Translations under genes and position numbers: made by a program
Origin: Sutcliffiella horikoshii
GTDB lineage: Bacteria > Bacillota > Bacilli > Bacillales > Bacillaceae_I
NCBI GenBank assembly: GCA_001636495.1
Contig: KV440964.1
Span: forward strand, 3,922,666 to 3,986,665
Direction: 5' to 3'
DNA: 64,000 bases
The notes under the pieces: model-generated
The model's input: only the letters and a program-made list of their open reading frames with translations
Told to the model about the DNA's origin: nothing
The model's database searches: none
Part shown: piece by piece, positions 53,048 to 63,811 of the stretch
Position numbering within the stretch: position 1 is the first letter of the stretch
Layout of the letters: each line of letters opens with the position of its first letter

Positions 53048-53238
53048 CTTTAAATCCCTCTCCTATCCCCTGTTGAAAAGTTATCTACGTTTCTTTTATA
53101 CATCCCTCATTATACTTGTTCTAATTAGAAGGTTAAAGGAATTTGTAACCGATTCCATCAAAAGCCTAATACACACGTCCTATGATTGGGTTTTTGTGGT
53201 AAAGTGGGAAATAAATTAGGTAGATGGGAGAAACAAAC

Positions 53239-54144
53239 ATGACACAGATAAAACTTTTACCGGCAAGTATTGGAGATGCGGAGCAATTGACAGCCATTAT
53301 GAAAAGAACATTTGATGAGGAAGCGTGCAGGTGGCTTGGTGGGCAAGAGTCGCATATAGTTGACTACAACATCCAACCCCCTGGCTATGATTCAGTTCAG
53401 ACTACGCGATATATGATAGAAGAACTTACTTATTTTAAAATAATGATGGGAGAAAAACTGGTTGGCGGGATTATTTTGACGCTGACGGGGAGCCGTTTCG
53501 GCAGGATTGATCGTATTTTTATTGACCCTGCTCTTCAAGGTCAAGGCATCGGTTCTGAAGTGATTCGGTTAGTGGAAAAAGCCCTTCCAAGTGTGTCGAC
53601 TTGGGACTTGGAAACCTCTCCAAGACAAAAGGGCAACCTTCATTTCTATGAAAAGATGGGGTATGAACGAACATTTGAAACGGAAGATGAAGTGTGTTTT
53701 ATCAAGCGAATTGATACCGGGTTGGCTGTCGCTGCGGAGAATGAATTTGAATCCTGCAATTTGGAGAGCGCGACCTTTTATGAGTCGAATTTAGCTAACA
53801 GTGCTTTCAGCAATAGCACTTTAGTCGGCGCTCATTTCAGCAATATTAATTTAAGTGGATCTAAGTTTCAAAACATTAACTTTCGGGATACATTGATTGC
53901 TGACTTGATTCTTTCGGGGAGTAGGGTCAAGCATGTGGAGATGAGTGGTGTGGTGTTTAGCGATACGACCATTGAAGGTGCACCTGTAAGCTTTGAGCGC
54001 TGTGAATTGATGGGGACTAGATTTAATGATTGCCGGATGGGTGATGTAGAGATCAATGCTTGCGACATTTCCGGGATGAAGATTGATGGGGTGTCGGTGG
54101 AGGAAATGTTAGAGGTTTATAGGAAGGTCATACAGAAGGGGTGA
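53239..54144 (+). CDS. GNAT acetyltransferase fused to pentapeptide-like repeats
   Basis: A 301-residue two-part protein. The GNAT domain covers about 1-155, with the acetyl-CoA loop RIFIDPALQGQGIGSEVI and the closing HFYEKMGYERTFE. From about 165 to 285 there is a run of pentapeptide-like A(D/N)LXX repeats (NLESATFYESNLANSAFSNS and later SGSKFQNINFRDT), which should form a right-handed beta-helix. The ATG at 53239 has GGGAG 8 nt upstream; an ATG at 53224 lacks a site. Function unknown; the beta-helix may bind a partner or a nucleic acid-like surface. Confidence 0.85.
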   Translation: MTQIKLLPASIGDAEQLTAIMKRTFDEEACRWLGGQESHIVDYNIQPPGYDSVQTTRYMIEELTYFKIMMGEKLVGGIILTLTGSRFGRIDRIFIDPALQGQGIGSEVIRLVEKALPSVSTWDLETSPRQKGNLHFYEKMGYERTFETEDEVCFIKRIDTGLAVAAENEFESCNLESATFYESNLANSAFSNSTLVGAHFSNINLSGSKFQNINFRDTLIADLILSGSRVKHVEMSGVVFSDTTIEGAPVSFERCELMGTRFNDCRMGDVEINACDISGMKIDGVSVEEMLEVYRKVIQKG

Positions 54145-54887: not shown

Positions 54888-55559
54888 ATGAAGACAACTA
54901 TACTACCACCAATTACCCCTTCCTATGATCCGTGGGAAGCTTATTTAGATGTGAAAGAATATGGCCAGATGGAGCTCACCAACGTCGAATTCACGACGAC
55001 GACGCTTTGCAATATGCGTTGTGAACACTGCGCCGTGGGATACACGTTACAACCAAAGGACCCACAGGCTTTGCCAATTGAACTGTTAATCCAACGTCTG
55101 GAAGAGATTCCGCGCCTTCGCTCCATCAGCATTACTGGCGGAGAGCCGATGATGAGCATGAAGTCAGTGAACGAATACGTTGTGCCACTGTTAAAATATG
55201 CGCATGAACGGGGTGTGCGAACGCAGATCAATTCGAACTTAACCTTAGATTTAGCCAGATATGAGAAAATCATTCCTTACTTGGATGTGCTACATATTTC
55301 TCATAACTGGGGGACGATGGATGACTTTGTCGAGGGCGGATTTGCGATGATGGACCGCAAGCCTACGTATGAGCAGCGGGCGAAGTACTTTGAACGTATG
55401 ATTGAAAATTCGAAGGCACTTACAGCAGCAGGCGTTATTGTGTCAGCGGAAACGATGCTGAACAAGCGTACCCTTCCTCATATCGAGCATATCCATAAAC
55501 AGATCGTCGAGGAGATGAACTGCCAAAGGCATGAGGTGCACCCTATGTATACTATGTAA
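54888..55559 (+). pseudogene. yfkAB: yfkAB radical SAM gene, 3'-truncated
   Basis: A 223-residue N-terminal part of the radical SAM/CxCxxxxC protein YfkAB (about 370 residues in B. subtilis). The start IEELTNVEF-like MELTNVEFTTTTLCNMRCEH carries the CxxxCxxC iron-sulfur motif, followed by SISITGGEPMM and the SAM-binding strands. Homology ends after HEVHPMYTM with TAATAA, and the sequence composition then changes to the accessory element. The C-terminal CxCxxxxC part is missing from the window. AAAGGAG lies 8 nt upstream of the ATG. Probably an integration site. Confidence 0.85.
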
Positions 55560-58699: not shown

Positions 58700-58729
58700 C
58701 AAAAAAGCGCCCTCGAATAGATAGGCGCT
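58700..58729 (-). terminator. Leader terminator (attenuator) of the rep-like gene
   Basis: AGCGCC (58706-58711) pairs with GGCGCT (58724-58729); on the minus strand the stem is followed by seven T residues. It lies 28 nt upstream of the rep-like start, so read-through would control expression. Confidence 0.6.
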
Positions 58730-58836
58730 ATCTTGCTTTGCGTTTGGTTTGGTTTGTTTTCTTAAAAATTATTCCTCACTTATTAGTACGCGTAGGAGCT
58801 AGTAGCTTGCGCAACTCCGAGATTGTTTTGTTTACA

Positions 58837-58893
58837 CACTTTAAAAATATCGTACCTTTTCTACGTTTCACTTTAAAAATATCGCACCTTTTC
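58837..58893. repeat. 25-bp direct repeats upstream of the rep-like gene
   Basis: CACTTTAAAAATATCGTACC and its continuation TTTTC at 58837-58861, repeated at 58869-58893 with one difference, 32 bp apart (three helical turns). They lie about 165 bp upstream of the rep-like start. They could be an initiator or repressor binding site. The rest of 58673-59213 holds no gene I can support. Confidence 0.6.
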
Positions 58894-59118
58894 AAATCGC
58901 TTCCATCCCTTGCGGCTGTAAGGTCTAGTGTGTTTTTTGTGGTATATGCTCTCTTATCTCATAGTATCGGTTTCGTAAATATCTACGCAATATATCTAAT
59001 AATAGTGGCGCTTGTACTGTGGGCTACGCCCCTCCTCGCCTCCGGCTCTCAGATTAACTATTGCAAGCTCATTTACTATCCTAAATTTATGCGCATAAGG
59101 ATACTAGAGTAAGTTTGA

Positions 59119-59531: not shown

Positions 59532-60001
59532 AAATAACCCCTCTTTTCTTGTTATCTAGTAATATTTTACACCATTCAACATTATATTTAACATTTTTTC
59601 GAAATGAGTTGAGATCTATTAGAAGGTAACATGAAATTCTACATTGCATTATTCCTGGTTATTTAGAGAAAACTATATCACTAGCACTAAAAACAGAAAA
59701 ATATATAAAGCTTTCTTTAAACTCAAATTGAGTGAAGTACAAGCAAAAATAAAATTATAGAACTATTTTTGGGTGGAAGCATTAGTGATTTTCTCCCCTC
59801 CTATTTTTATTACACCGTAAGGAAATTAGAGATTATTTGTTTATTACACTCGTTAATATTAGTATCTTTATAGAAATAATATATACACATATAGGTGCAG
59901 CACCCCTATTTTTATGTTGTTTTTAAACTTTTCGCTTGTTTTTTACAGTGCTGCTACATTATAATACATTTATAACAAAAAATATTAAGGAGTTGTTTAT
60001 A
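59532..60001. other. 470-bp gap before the DUF262 gene
   Basis: AT-rich. It holds the presumed promoter of the 105-residue gene at the left, a hairpin TAGGTG-CAG-CACCCCTA followed by T residues at 59891-59913, and the DUF262 promoter at the right. No gene could be supported. Confidence 0.4.
59936..59965 (+). promoter_or_regulatory. Promoter of the DUF262 gene
   Basis: TTGTTT (59936-59941), an 18-nt spacer and TATAAT (59960-59965), about 30 nt before the AAGGAG ribosome binding site. Confidence 0.65.
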
Positions 60002-61177
60002 TTGGCAACAATAAACAAGGAATTAATTAAAGCCACATCTTTTAACCCCACAAAAAGATCTTATCAAGCCTCAATAAAAAGTTTATGCGAACGCATTGAA
60101 AAGAAACAACTTTTTTTACCGTTATATCAATCTGGTATGCGTTGGACGCTCGGAAAGAATATAGATCTACTTAACTTTCAGTTATTAGGAAAAGCTCCTG
60201 TGTCACCCATATCAATAAACGAGATAAATAATACAGAAATTGCTGTCGAACAAGTATCGTTTATTAACAGAGACCTTATTGAGGGGAACATACAAGGCAA
60301 ACAATCGGTTACAGATGGACAACAACGTTTAACCTGTAATTACAAGGCTTTCACTGATGACGACAGCTTCAGGAGTGTGGTGTTAGATATTGGTAGAGGC
60401 CGTTTTTACGAAGTCAACGGAGAAATTCAAAGATATCAAATACCTGTAGGGAAATTGCTAAACAAGGATGTACAAGTATTCTTCGATTACACAAACAGTA
60501 ACTCTTTCTTGAAAAAACAAGAAGTTAAAGACGTGTTAATGTCTGTACGAAGCAAGTTATTTGATTACAATTACACAGTAAACATCGCTGAAGACTTAAC
60601 AGAATCTGAACAAGTACATTGGTTCGAAGTACTCAACAACGCTGGAAGCCGAGTGTCACAAGTACAAATTAAGTTCGCTAAACTTTTAGTTCAGGGTTTA
60701 GATATTTATTCAGATTATACAGATGTATTCGTTACAATAATGAAAGAAAACGGCTACGGAAATTTATTTTCGCAAAAAAACACAGAAGTTTCTATACCCG
60801 TAGCTACGTTAAATCCTGCATACGAAGTAATTTTAGAGAAAGAACATGTCCGTAACTTCTGTCCAATGGCATCAGACACTAAAGAAAATCAACTTTGCTC
60901 ATTAGGTGTCGAAAAGTTAAAACGGTGTTTTGATATAACCTTAGACGCGCTACACAAAGCAATTAACTTTATAGATAACAATGATCTTGTACCACCTACA
61001 AGAATAGACTTCATAACCTATATAACTGGACTATATGTATTTAATAAGAATGAGGAGCTTACCCTCTCCCAAACAAAAGCATTGATAGAATGGTATCAAG
61101 AAGCAGATTTTTCTAACAAATCAAATGATGAAAGAAGAGATATGTTTAAAGATATTATTAAAATCAAAAATTACTAA
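60002..61177 (+). CDS. DUF262 (ParB/Srx-fold) protein
   Basis: A 391-residue cytosolic protein. Residues about 30-130 carry the DUF262 signatures: LPLYQSGMRWTLGKNIDLLN (the xPxxQRxxxW-type motif) and SVTDGQQRLT near 105, the DGQQR nucleotide-binding/hydrolase motif. EVLNNAGSRVSQVQIKFAKL near 212 matches the third conserved block. No DUF1524 HNH domain is fused, unlike GmrSD. The start is TTG at 60002 with AAGGAG about 10 nt upstream. DUF262 proteins occur in Type IV restriction and other anti-phage systems. It is convergent with the XRE-McrB_N-HNH gene and shares its terminator. Confidence 0.85.
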   Translation: MATINKELIKATSFNPTKRSYQASIKSLCERIEKKQLFLPLYQSGMRWTLGKNIDLLNFQLLGKAPVSPISINEINNTEIAVEQVSFINRDLIEGNIQGKQSVTDGQQRLTCNYKAFTDDDSFRSVVLDIGRGRFYEVNGEIQRYQIPVGKLLNKDVQVFFDYTNSNSFLKKQEVKDVLMSVRSKLFDYNYTVNIAEDLTESEQVHWFEVLNNAGSRVSQVQIKFAKLLVQGLDIYSDYTDVFVTIMKENGYGNLFSQKNTEVSIPVATLNPAYEVILEKEHVRNFCPMASDTKENQLCSLGVEKLKRCFDITLDALHKAINFIDNNDLVPPTRIDFITYITGLYVFNKNEELTLSQTKALIEWYQEADFSNKSNDERRDMFKDIIKIKNY

Positions 61178-61183
61178 AAAAAT

Positions 61184-61217
61184 GCCCGCTTCTAGTATTA
61201 CTAGAGGCAGGCTTTTT
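61184..61217. terminator. Shared bidirectional terminator
   Basis: GCCCGCTTCTAGT pairs with ACTAGAGGCAGGC around ATT, with A residues before and T residues after. It serves both the DUF262 and XRE-McrB_N-HNH genes. Confidence 0.85.
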
Positions 61218-61224
61218 CATATTA

Positions 61225-62613
61225 TTACACAATACCATACGCTACTTTCAGCTCGTCAAAACTTATTGTTATACCTACCCTTTTTAAACCTTCGTTTTTC
61301 TTTTCATATAACTTCCTTAATAACCTCTCTCTTTCAATATCCAGACCATGATGTAATAAACGGTGAATAGCTGGTGATAAGCATAAAATGTTACTACCCT
61401 TATCTAAACTGTTTTCATACTTATGCTGAAGAGCCATTGGAACAAGGTGATGCGCTTCCATATAAGGCTTCCCTGTTACTTTTGATATAAATTCCATATA
61501 TACTTCACCACTTTCACATTTGTACCCAGCTTTTTTTAAAGCTTTTGCGGCAATCTTTGCATTTCTTGGCCAACGTCTCTTTCCCCCTTTGTCAATTATC
61601 GCATCTGGTCGCGGCTCTGCTCGCTCATCATCTTCCACCTCTCCATTTGTATCTGTTACCACTGAAGAAACAGTTTCTTGATATTTTTCTTCCGATTCTT
61701 CTATTTCTAGAAATTGTTGATCATCTTCCAAAAGGACCATGTTATTAAACTGGTCAATTGTGCGTCCTTCGAGCATTCCTTCGATTTCTTTATAAGCAAC
61801 TAACAGATCTTGCAAATCCTGAACTAACTCACTTGGATTATCTAACTCTTCTAAACTATAATATCTTCCTAAAATATGGCCCTCTTCATACCCTTTACTT
61901 AGGTACCCTGTACCATTCAAATGAATTTTATCCTGCTGCAATCTAGGCGGAACGAAGTTCAATTTACCCCTAATAGAATCTGCTACTTTTTTCACTTTTT
62001 GCTTTCCTATCTTATTGCCATACTTCTCTTGAAAAAAAGAGTATCCTTGGTTCAAACTCAAATAGAATCCACTCATGTCTGCTTTAAATAGATAAACAAC
62101 ATAATAACCACGAGTAGCAGAATTAGTAACATTTCTCGAAAAGATACACAACCATGGTATTTCAGCCCACTGACCTTGGCCTACAGATCCTGTTACTTGA
62201 TACTTAGATTCATTTAAAGGCACTCCCTTAATAAAGCTGCTTTTAAGATTCTCACGGATAAAACTTCCCATTGCATGCCCTTTAAACTGTTCTGTCTTAG
62301 ATTTGAGATAATTACCAAGCACAAACTGCAAATGTTCAACTAGAATTAATTGATTTCTCCTCGGAAGTTTTTTGAGCTCTGACATTTCATTAGTTGTAAC
62401 TGAATGGTTAAGCAATTGGTTTAGAGAAACTCCAAACAACTCGGCAAGTTTTATTAAAGTCTCTCCATCGACTCTTTGCTCACCGTTTTCTATTTTACCT
62501 AACGATGTATACGGCACACCAATCTCACGGGATAATTCCCTTAAAGACAAACCTTTTGATTCCCTTTGACTACGGATACTTCTTCCAATGTATATTTTAT
62601 CAATCCTTGACAC
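61225..62613 (-). CDS. XRE-McrB_N(DUF3578)-HNH restriction-like protein
   Basis: A 462-residue fusion. Residues about 8-70 are an XRE helix-turn-helix (RESKGLSLRELSREIGVPYT). Residues about 100-280 match the McrB N-terminal/DUF3578 domain, with GQGQWAEIPWLCIFSRNVTN, YYVVYLFKADMSGFYLSLNQ and the closing KYYG-like EKYGNK block; this domain reads modified DNA bases in McrBC-type enzymes. An acidic linker follows, then an HNH nuclease (about 345-450) with YMEAHHLVPMALQ near 386 and NILCLSPAIHRLLHHG. The start is GTG with GGGGAG upstream. Likely a self-regulated, modification-dependent nuclease; the specificity is inferred. Confidence 0.85.
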   Translation of the reverse strand: MSRIDKIYIGRSIRSQRESKGLSLRELSREIGVPYTSLGKIENGEQRVDGETLIKLAELFGVSLNQLLNHSVTTNEMSELKKLPRRNQLILVEHLQFVLGNYLKSKTEQFKGHAMGSFIRENLKSSFIKGVPLNESKYQVTGSVGQGQWAEIPWLCIFSRNVTNSATRGYYVVYLFKADMSGFYLSLNQGYSFFQEKYGNKIGKQKVKKVADSIRGKLNFVPPRLQQDKIHLNGTGYLSKGYEEGHILGRYYSLEELDNPSELVQDLQDLLVAYKEIEGMLEGRTIDQFNNMVLLEDDQQFLEIEESEEKYQETVSSVVTDTNGEVEDDERAEPRPDAIIDKGGKRRWPRNAKIAAKALKKAGYKCESGEVYMEFISKVTGKPYMEAHHLVPMALQHKYENSLDKGSNILCLSPAIHRLLHHGLDIERERLLRKLYEKKNEGLKRVGITISFDELKVAYGIV

Positions 62614-62674: not shown

Positions 62675-62713
62675 TTTTTTCAACCTTTCCCAGTCGTTTT
62701 TTTATTATTCAAT

Positions 62714-62793
62714 GTTTCTAAAAAAGAAACATATATAAAATTATTTTTGTTTCTATATAAGAAACACGGATATATTTCTAAACAAATAGAAAC
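62714..62793. promoter_or_regulatory. Three GTTTCT-AGAAAC palindromes
   Basis: GTTTCTAAAAAAGAAAC (62714-62730) and GTTTCTATATAAGAAAC (62749-62765) are perfect 17-bp palindromes of 6-bp arms and 5-bp centres. A third, imperfect copy has ATTTCT and AGAAAC 8 bp apart (62774-62793). They lie 40-120 bp upstream of the predicted -35 of the XRE-HNH gene and look like binding sites of a dimeric HTH protein, plausibly its own XRE domain. Confidence 0.65.
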
Positions 62794-63181: not shown

Positions 63182-63811
63182 ATTAAAAAACTATTATTCT
63201 TTATTATATTTTTAGGTGTTTTATATTTTATTGTAGGCTTTTTAGCAGTTAAATTAGGTTGGCTTGACAATAATACTTATCATTCTTATGCAACAGTTGT
63301 CGGTGGGATTGCAACATTATGCGGTTTAATAACTTTCACTTTACCTAATTTAACAGCAGATGATTTAGAAAAACTTGAAATCAAATCCCTAGAAAGAGTA
63401 ACAAAAATAGCAGAAGATTTAAATTTAAAAAAAGGCGAGCTTTACATTAAGGAATCTGAAATAAGTAGGCTAGACCAACAAAAAAAAGAAATGGAATTTC
63501 TAGTTAGAAAAGCAAGTTTAAGTCTTTTCTTACAAGATCAAGTAGAAAGAAATGAGACCAGAGTTTTAAAATTAATTAGCGAGGATAAAGAACTCATCCG
63601 TTCACTAGAAGAAATAATGGCGAACAGGGAAAAATTAGCTGCACTAGATGAAGAAATCAAAGTGAGTGAACAAGTGGAATTATTAGAGGAGATCATCAAA
63701 AGGGCCAAAGGAAATGAAAATAGCTCTATTACATTTATGGGCATAGGTACTATTCCTATTCCTATTACTCCTTTTATAGAAAGGTTGATTCAAGTATTCC
63801 GTCTTAAATAA
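63182..63811 (+). CDS. Two-helix membrane protein with coiled coil, probable ATT start
   Basis: A 209-residue protein if translation begins at ATT 63182, which has AGGAGGG 7 nt upstream. The frame is closed by a TAG at 63167 and has no ATG, GTG or TTG before 63491. N-terminal KKLLFFIIFLGVLYFIVGFL and YATVVGGIATLCGLITFTL are two membrane helices (about 2-24 and 40-58). A long coiled coil follows (about 65-180), then a short Pro/Ile-rich C-terminus (GIGTIPIPITPF). An ATG-start internal product (63491, 106 residues) would lack both helices. It is in the defence-type cargo; function unknown. Confidence 0.6.
   Translation: MKKLLFFIIFLGVLYFIVGFLAVKLGWLDNNTYHSYATVVGGIATLCGLITFTLPNLTADDLEKLEIKSLERVTKIAEDLNLKKGELYIKESEISRLDQQKKEMEFLVRKASLSLFLQDQVERNETRVLKLISEDKELIRSLEEIMANREKLAALDEEIKVSEQVELLEEIIKRAKGNENSSITFMGIGTIPIPITPFIERLIQVFRLK

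What the first reader, a model, noticed from the sequence alone, without database searches (positions are those of the whole stretch)
60002..62613. Candidate new defence pair: DUF262 protein and XRE-McrB_N-HNH nuclease
In GmrSD the DUF262 and HNH (DUF1524) parts act together. Here a DUF262 protein is encoded back-to-back with an HNH nuclease that instead carries a McrB-type modified-base reader and its own XRE repressor domain, and both genes share one terminator. The pair could be a split, self-regulated modification-dependent restriction system.
Basis: partly seen in the sequence, partly recalled or inferred. Interest (0 to 1): 0.75.

Follow-up and report, generated by a model that had tools for sequence, protein, structure and literature searches.

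The report
Self-controlled modified-DNA cutter beside lone DUF262
Two neighbouring genes on a mobile DNA element probably each guard the cell against foreign DNA, but they appear to be separate devices rather than one, and the more unusual of the two looks like a modified-DNA cutter that carries its own gene switch.

Summary
The domains are real: window:60002-61177(+) is a standalone DUF262 protein; window:61225-62613(-) is XRE + McrB-type reader + McrA-type HNH. The genes converge on one bidirectional terminator. 'Self-regulated' gains support: two exact TGTTTCT-N5-AGAAACA palindromes lie upstream of the nuclease gene (4 core sites in the 4.26-Mb genome); the motif recurs before one of three other XRE-bearing relatives and before 0 of 17 XRE-less genes or the DUF262 gene. 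Reader-pocket and HNH residues are kept; apparent zinc ligands are lost. Both genes are cargo of a ~15.2-kb serine-recombinase element in yfkAB. Best reading: two independent anti-invader genes, one a Type IV-like endonuclease with a built-in controller: a new variant of a known kind. No activity was tested.

The parts
60002..61177 (+). Standalone DUF262 (GmrSD_N / ParB-Srx-like) protein, 391 aa, no DUF1524; own family of ~390-aa proteins, seen mostly in Bacillota
61225..62613 (-). XRE (aa 13-66) + MrcB_N reader (aa 98-278) + HNH_2 (aa 379-424) protein, 462 aa
61188..61208 (.). Shared bidirectional terminator stem-loop between the convergent genes
62713..62731 (.). Operator-like palindrome TGTTTCT-N5-AGAAACA, exact, upstream of the XRE-reader-HNH gene
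62748..62766 (.). Second exact copy of the same palindrome, 35 bp further upstream
63182..63811 (+). Divergent ORF for a ~209-aa membrane/coiled-coil-like protein (apparent ATT start after AGGAGG; topology and start judged by eye); cargo neighbour, partnership not shown
54888..55559 (+). Truncated host yfkAB 5' end; left junction of the ~15.2-kb element that carries the pair (right junction lies outside the window)

Best explanation
The locus is cargo of a ~15.2-kb serine-recombinase element inserted in yfkAB, and it holds two functionally separate genes that share only a terminator. The XRE-MrcB_N-HNH protein is a single-chain, Type IV-like (modification-dependent) endonuclease: the McrB-type domain flips out and reads a modified cytosine (inferred from homology and kept pocket residues), the McrA-type HNH domain cuts (inferred from kept catalytic positions), and the XRE domain binds the two TGTTTCT-N5-AGAAACA palindromes upstream of its own gene and sets its expression (inferred from sequence; whether it represses or activates is open). 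The DUF262 protein is a solo NTPase-type protein of a separate family seen in prophages, plasmids and some restriction-modification loci, acting on its own or on a partner not identified here.
For: Shown by computation: independent distribution; XRE-reader-HNH architecture recurring in L049 and L090, and in L051 with an in-frame stop, all four inside one supported clade of seven rows; McrA and McrB-N as nearest structures for HNH and reader; residues aligned to McrB W49, Y64 and L68 kept and HNH positions kept; operator motif at 2 of 4 XRE-bearing and 0 of 17 XRE-less genes; 4 exact core sites in the whole genome of which 2 are here. The L049 gene with the same motif has a similar XRE recognition-helix stretch (8 of 12 identical), while L090 and L051, without the motif, differ more. 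A C-protein/REase fusion active as both is published for a Type II enzyme (PMC3850674, abstract).
Against: No cleavage, binding or phage data. The HNH has lost three of four apparent zinc ligands (CYSI where 17 of 19 rows, own included, have CHCC), so activity is not certain. Two of 26 genomes show a related HNH beside the DUF262 gene, a hint of a functional link. No motif was found for L090 and L051. As a single inverted repeat the palindrome is not exceptional for this AT-rich stretch (6 of 60 shuffles have one as long); the window-wide scan with 2 mismatches gives 3 matches, reached by 1 of 100 shuffles; the L049 match is reached by 10 of 200 shuffles of its locus. The XRE domain matches C.BclI and C.AhdI but as well ClgR, SinR, BldD and P22 c2, so it is not specifically a C protein. 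The pocket position of McrB Y41 is Gln here. The XRE label needs 4 changes on the tree, no fewer than in 500 of 500 shuffles.
Confidence: 0.7

Rival explanations
1. A split GmrSD-like system: the DUF262 NTPase senses or gates, and the HNH protein cuts in trans with its own reader.
For: Tail-to-tail pairing with a shared terminator. Among 26 genomes with the DUF262 family the only two P0002-type HNH hits at E <= 1e-15 (L077, L081) lie 227 and 19 bp from the DUF262 gene, both HNH frames open. DUF262 without DUF1524 is known beside a predicted OLD nuclease in Menshen (PMC10952713 passages).
Confidence: 0.13
2. The XRE-MrcB_N-HNH protein is mainly a regulator: the XRE and reader domains bind DNA, and the zinc-less HNH is a dead or weak nuclease.
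For: Apparent Zn positions lost in it and in its nearest relative L050 only; operator-like sites.
Against: All six checked HNH positions (H388 H389 D404 N408 H417 H421) are kept in it and in L050; relatives without XRE keep reader and HNH together.
Confidence: 0.12
3. Neither gene is expressed or functional: relics in a decaying element.
For: Rare in the genus (DUF262 in 1 of 16 genomes; the full-length reader-HNH in 1 of 16).
Against: Both frames are intact with ribosome-binding sites, operator-like sites and a terminator; 28 of 28 aligned full-length rows keep DGQQR.
Confidence: 0.05

Closest known systems
EcoKMcrA (McrA; reader + HNH, Type IV)
   Same: Single chain, C-terminal HNH of the same kind (profile hit to 6ghc E 8.1e-12; Foldseek best hit)
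   Different: Reader is McrB-N-like, not McrA's own N-terminal domain; extra XRE domain and operator-like sites; apparent zinc ligands lost
EcoKMcrB N-terminal domain (DUF3578/ADAM; McrBC)
   Same: Base-flipping reader fold; residues aligned to W49, Y64 and L68 kept (contacts of Y64 and L68 from PMC3874153 passages; the role of W49 is not from a call)
C protein-REase fusions such as CR.NsoJS138I (Type IIP)
   Same: Controller domain fused to a restriction enzyme (PMC3850674 abstract); the XRE domain resembles C.BclI and C.AhdI, among other XRE proteins
   Different: Here the enzyme is modification-dependent in type and no cognate methyltransferase gene was seen among the element ORFs examined
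EVE-HNH (VcaM4I) and SRA-HNH (TagI) endonucleases
   Same: Reader + HNH design (starts of abstracts in the listing)
   Different: Different reader fold; no XRE mentioned in those abstract starts
SspE / BrxU / GmrSD (DUF262 + DUF1524)
   Same: DUF262 with DGQQR; SspE is the best PDB hit for the model (E 4.2e-3)
   Different: P0001 has no DUF1524 match and its family no conserved histidine
Menshen, Dazbog, PD-T4-2, and GmrS-only proteins (DUF262 without DUF1524)
   Same: DUF262 without DUF1524, in defence (PMC10952713 passages) or as incomplete GmrSD variants (PMC4619093 passages)
   Different: The only PADLOC match of P0001 is a weak REase_II model (E 4.7e-4); whether the library holds models of these three was not checked and no direct comparison was made

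Membership tests
GmrSD (Type IV, DUF262 + DUF1524) | DUF262 domain with DGQQR | tested here: met
   (below curated cut-off)
GmrSD (Type IV, DUF262 + DUF1524) | DUF1524 nuclease in the same protein or an adjacent gene | tested here: not met
   the only DUF1524 hit of the genome lies at C1:69982-70272, far away; 13 of 23 genomes searched (the window's own and 22 of the 26 DUF262-family genomes) have none
Type IV modification-dependent endonuclease (reader + nuclease) | Modified-base reader domain with pocket | tested here: met
   (by homology; Y41 position differs)
Type IV modification-dependent endonuclease (reader + nuclease) | Nuclease domain with catalytic residues | tested here: met
   (apparent zinc ligands lost)
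Type IV modification-dependent endonuclease (reader + nuclease) | Cleaves modified but not unmodified DNA | not testable with these tools
   needs enzyme assay
McrBC | McrB AAA+ GTPase and McrC | tested here: not met
   no AAA+ match in the protein; the neighbours scanned are not McrC; the genome's separate MrcB_N protein lies at C1:4207310
C protein-REase fusion (CR) | XRE-type controller domain fused to a restriction enzyme | tested here: met
   (XRE generic, not specifically a C protein)
C protein-REase fusion (CR) | Binding of its own promoter region | tested here: inconclusive
   palindromes present and rare; binding not assayed
C protein-REase fusion (CR) | Cognate methyltransferase in a Type IIP system | tested here: not met
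   no methyltransferase among the element ORFs listed and annotated; the smallest ORFs were not scanned
Conserved two-gene defence system | The two families co-occur | tested here: not met

The most novel reading that the evidence does not exclude
DUF262 NTPases of this family may recruit interchangeable McrA-type HNH nucleases in trans (with a McrB reader here, other N-termini in L077 and L081), a modular relative of GmrSD, with the HNH partner here under the control of its own fused XRE switch.
Probability: 0.11. Interest if true: 0.65.

Novelty: new variant of a known kind. Interest (0 to 1): 0.42.

Why it matters
Type II restriction enzymes are often timed by controller proteins because the host must be methylated first. 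A modification-dependent enzyme has no methyltransferase to wait for, so a built-in controller with its own operator raises a testable question: does a mobile Type IV-like nuclease need delayed or limited expression to enter hosts whose own DNA carries modified cytosine? The pair also shows how neighbour-based guesses about defence systems can be checked and turned down.

Tried and rejected
Considered and rejected: (1) a conserved DUF262 + reader-HNH operon. (2) Co-regulation by one XRE operator: no motif up to 3 mismatches in 59533-60001. (3) DUF262 acting with a distant DUF1524: one hit in the own genome, far away; 13 of 23 genomes have none. (4) A constant partner for the DUF262 family: no neighbour cluster is found in more than 5 of 31 loci within 6 kb: resolvase-like 5, integrase-like 5, C5 methyltransferases 5. 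(5) XRE ancestral to the whole reader-HNH family: the four XRE-bearing rows fall in one supported clade of seven, but the label needs 4 changes, no fewer than in shuffles, so one gain and several losses or several gains.

Papers: no description of a MrcB_N/DUF3578-HNH fusion was seen in the listings (15 of 24 papers listed) or in the passages I saw of PMC3874153, PMC7641849, PMC11090510, PMC10030836 and PMC12707154; other listed papers were not opened, and the library lacks most subscription journals.

Dropped or limited: sample the order and score only a few candidates per genome (4). L082 and L083 (short matches) were left out of the 26 genomes and, with L072 and L081, out of the 28-row alignment; L042, L048 and L086 were left out as duplicates of the neighbour counts (31 of 34 loci); L061, L070, L072 and L081 were left out of the DUF1524 search. 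Only 3 of 29 staphylococcal plasmids and 6 of 1,372 plasmid records with P0002-like matches were viewed. The 200-bp test of L090 leaves out a palindrome overlapping its start codon. On checking, a stop that I had held against the L081 HNH is only the end of its own frame, so I moved the pair reading from 0.12 to 0.13, the regulator reading from 0.13 to 0.12 and the novel case from 0.10 to 0.11.
Full report
What is there. The window lies in a 4.26-Mb genome at C1:3922666-3986665. The + strand gene 60002-61177 is a 391-aa DUF262 (GmrSD_N) protein and the - strand gene 61225-62613 a 462-aa protein with XRE, MrcB_N and HNH_2 domains. They converge, with 47 bp between them. A stem-loop at 61188-61208 can end transcription from both sides. 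Upstream of the nuclease gene and divergent from it lies an ORF for a ~209-aa protein that looks by eye like a membrane plus coiled-coil protein with an ATT start; it has relatives in 3 of 397 genomes of the order, the own one included, and one on a Pseudomonas plasmid.

Do the two families go together? Without the own genome this is 2 and 7 of 396 with 0 shared; at these frequencies about 0.04 shared genomes would be expected by chance, so the count has little power to exclude a weak link. Six DUF262 proteins (own, two from the order, three plasmid ones) were aligned and used to fetch 28 loci from named genomes, two of them short matches, and 4 from viral contigs; 29 staphylococcal plasmids carry relatives, one of them over half the length. 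In 26 of the 28 genomes a profile of nine reader-HNH proteins finds, at E <= 1e-15, no reader-HNH protein; it finds two HNH proteins matching only the C-terminal part of the profile, L077 and L081, which lie 227 and 19 bp from the DUF262 gene. Both HNH frames are open and give no MrcB_N match. This is the best remaining hint of a link. It is weakened because the L081 DUF262 copy lacks roughly its first 110 residues with the DGQQR motif.

The DUF262 protein. It is a family of ~390-aa proteins seen mostly in Bacillota; the 28 full-length rows aligned keep P40, Q43, W48 and DGQQR. No histidine is conserved at 90%, so an HNH or DUF1524 site is unlikely. The model has mean pLDDT 89.4. The best PDB hit is SspE (E 4.2e-3, with a low TM-score over the whole chain); a giant-virus protein of similar length annotated as GmrSD N-terminal domain matches better (E 1.1e-7). 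Neighbours vary: within 6 kb no cluster occurs in more than 5 of 31 loci; C5 methyltransferases occur in 5 of 31, and an NgoPII-type and an Abi_2 gene in one locus each among the ten proteins scanned. PMC10952713 (passages) lists DUF262 proteins without DUF1524 in Menshen, Dazbog and PD-T4-2, and PMC4619093 (passages) reports GmrS-only proteins, so a defence role is plausible and a lone DUF262 protein is not new in itself; the role is inferred, not shown.

The XRE-reader-HNH protein. A profile of nine family members finds EcoKMcrA (6ghc) at E 8.1e-12 and the McrB N-terminal domain (3ssc) at E 0.03. The model (mean pLDDT 82.9, pTM 0.57) finds McrA first, then McrB-N structures, and for the XRE domain C.BclI and C.AhdI as well as ClgR, SinR, BldD and P22 c2. 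PMC3874153 (passages) gives Y64 and L68 of McrB as contacts of the flipped base; these align with Y171 and L175, and W49 with W154. Tyr is kept in 8 of 9 rows of A2 and 11 of 11 of A4, Leu in 9 of 9 and 10 of 11, Trp in all (the own protein is in both). The Y41 position is Gln here and varies. The HNH positions H388, H389, D404, H417 and H421 are kept in all rows; N408 is Gln in two. Four apparent zinc ligands (C, H, C, C; assigned by me from the alignment) are complete in 17 of the 19 rows (L055 and L098 are copies), but are CYSI here and CLSA in L050, its nearest relative (53% identical). So this is a zinc-less HNH subgroup by prediction.

The switch. Of 21 genes examined, four carry the XRE domain: this one, L049, L090, and L051, in which an in-frame stop lies between the XRE piece and the rest. 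All four fall in one clade of seven rows (98/96 support), though the label as such is no more clustered than in shuffles. Two exact TGTTTCT-N5-AGAAACA palindromes start 118 and 153 bp upstream of the start codon. With up to 2 mismatches the window has 3 matches, one of them inside the nuclease gene; 1 of 100 shuffles reaches 3. The core GTTTCT-N5-AGAAAC has only four sites in the whole genome, and two are these. L049, from another family of the order, 46% identical and with a similar recognition-helix stretch (VPFTSLSKMESG against VPYTSLGKIENG, 8 of 12 identical; that this is the recognition helix is my reading), has the motif with one mismatch 69 bp upstream. None of 17 XRE-less genes (two pairs are copies) has it within 200 bp at up to 2 mismatches, nor do L090 and L051, whose helices differ more; L051 has a different 24-bp palindrome at -48. 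By length alone the own palindrome is not exceptional: 6 of 60 shuffles hold an inverted repeat as long; the case rests on the exact repetition, the genome-wide rarity and the recurrence at L049. The DUF262 promoter region has no such site up to 3 mismatches. This pattern fits self-regulation by the XRE domain. The sign is open: the L049 site sits just upstream of a promoter-like sequence as an activator site would, judged by eye only. Controller-REase fusions have been shown to do both jobs in a Type II system (PMC3850674, abstract; also mentioned in PMC12707154, passages).

The element. The host's yfkAB is cut after about 230 codons (window 54888-55559); a complete yfkAB stands 15.2 kb to the right, next to a 504-aa serine recombinase. 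Its first 232 codons are on average 70% identical to those of 15 genus relatives, while the rest is 89% identical; the truncated copy is 97% identical. So the element brought a foreign 5' end that restores the gene. The recombinase occurs in 9 of 397 genomes at E <= 1e-80, the own one included, and lies beside yfkAB in all 8 others.

Verdict. The protein is a new variant of a known kind: Type IV-like reader-HNH nuclease with a fused controller. No paper describing a MrcB_N-HNH fusion came up in the listings, within an open-licence library.

Noticed in passing
window 54888-55559 and L002:15106-17926 (C1:3991105-3993925): A ~15.2-kb serine-recombinase element splits yfkAB and carries its own diverged first ~230 codons so that the gene is restored; related recombinases sit beside yfkAB in 8 of 8 other genomes.
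   Followed up: partly
L002:5368-5728 and L002:11222-11506 (window about 58702-59062, the second copy just beyond the window): Direct repeats of the same region (83%, 87% and 77% in three blocks) flank the DUF262/HNH cargo about 5.8 kb apart, with internal units resembling CACTTTRAAAATATCGYAYCTTTT; possible cassette boundaries or binding sites.
   Followed up: no
window 63182-63811: Membrane/coiled-coil-like protein with apparent ATT start; a 38%-identical relative on a Pseudomonas plasmid lies next to an S-4TM effector and a nucleotidyltransferase gene.
   Followed up: partly
   Followed up: partly
   Followed up: no
window 53224-54144: Fusion of a GNAT acetyltransferase domain with a pentapeptide-repeat domain.
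   Followed up: no
P0002 aa 366, 372, 413, 416: HNH domain without three of four apparent zinc ligands; among 19 aligned rows only it and L050 lack them.
   Followed up: yes
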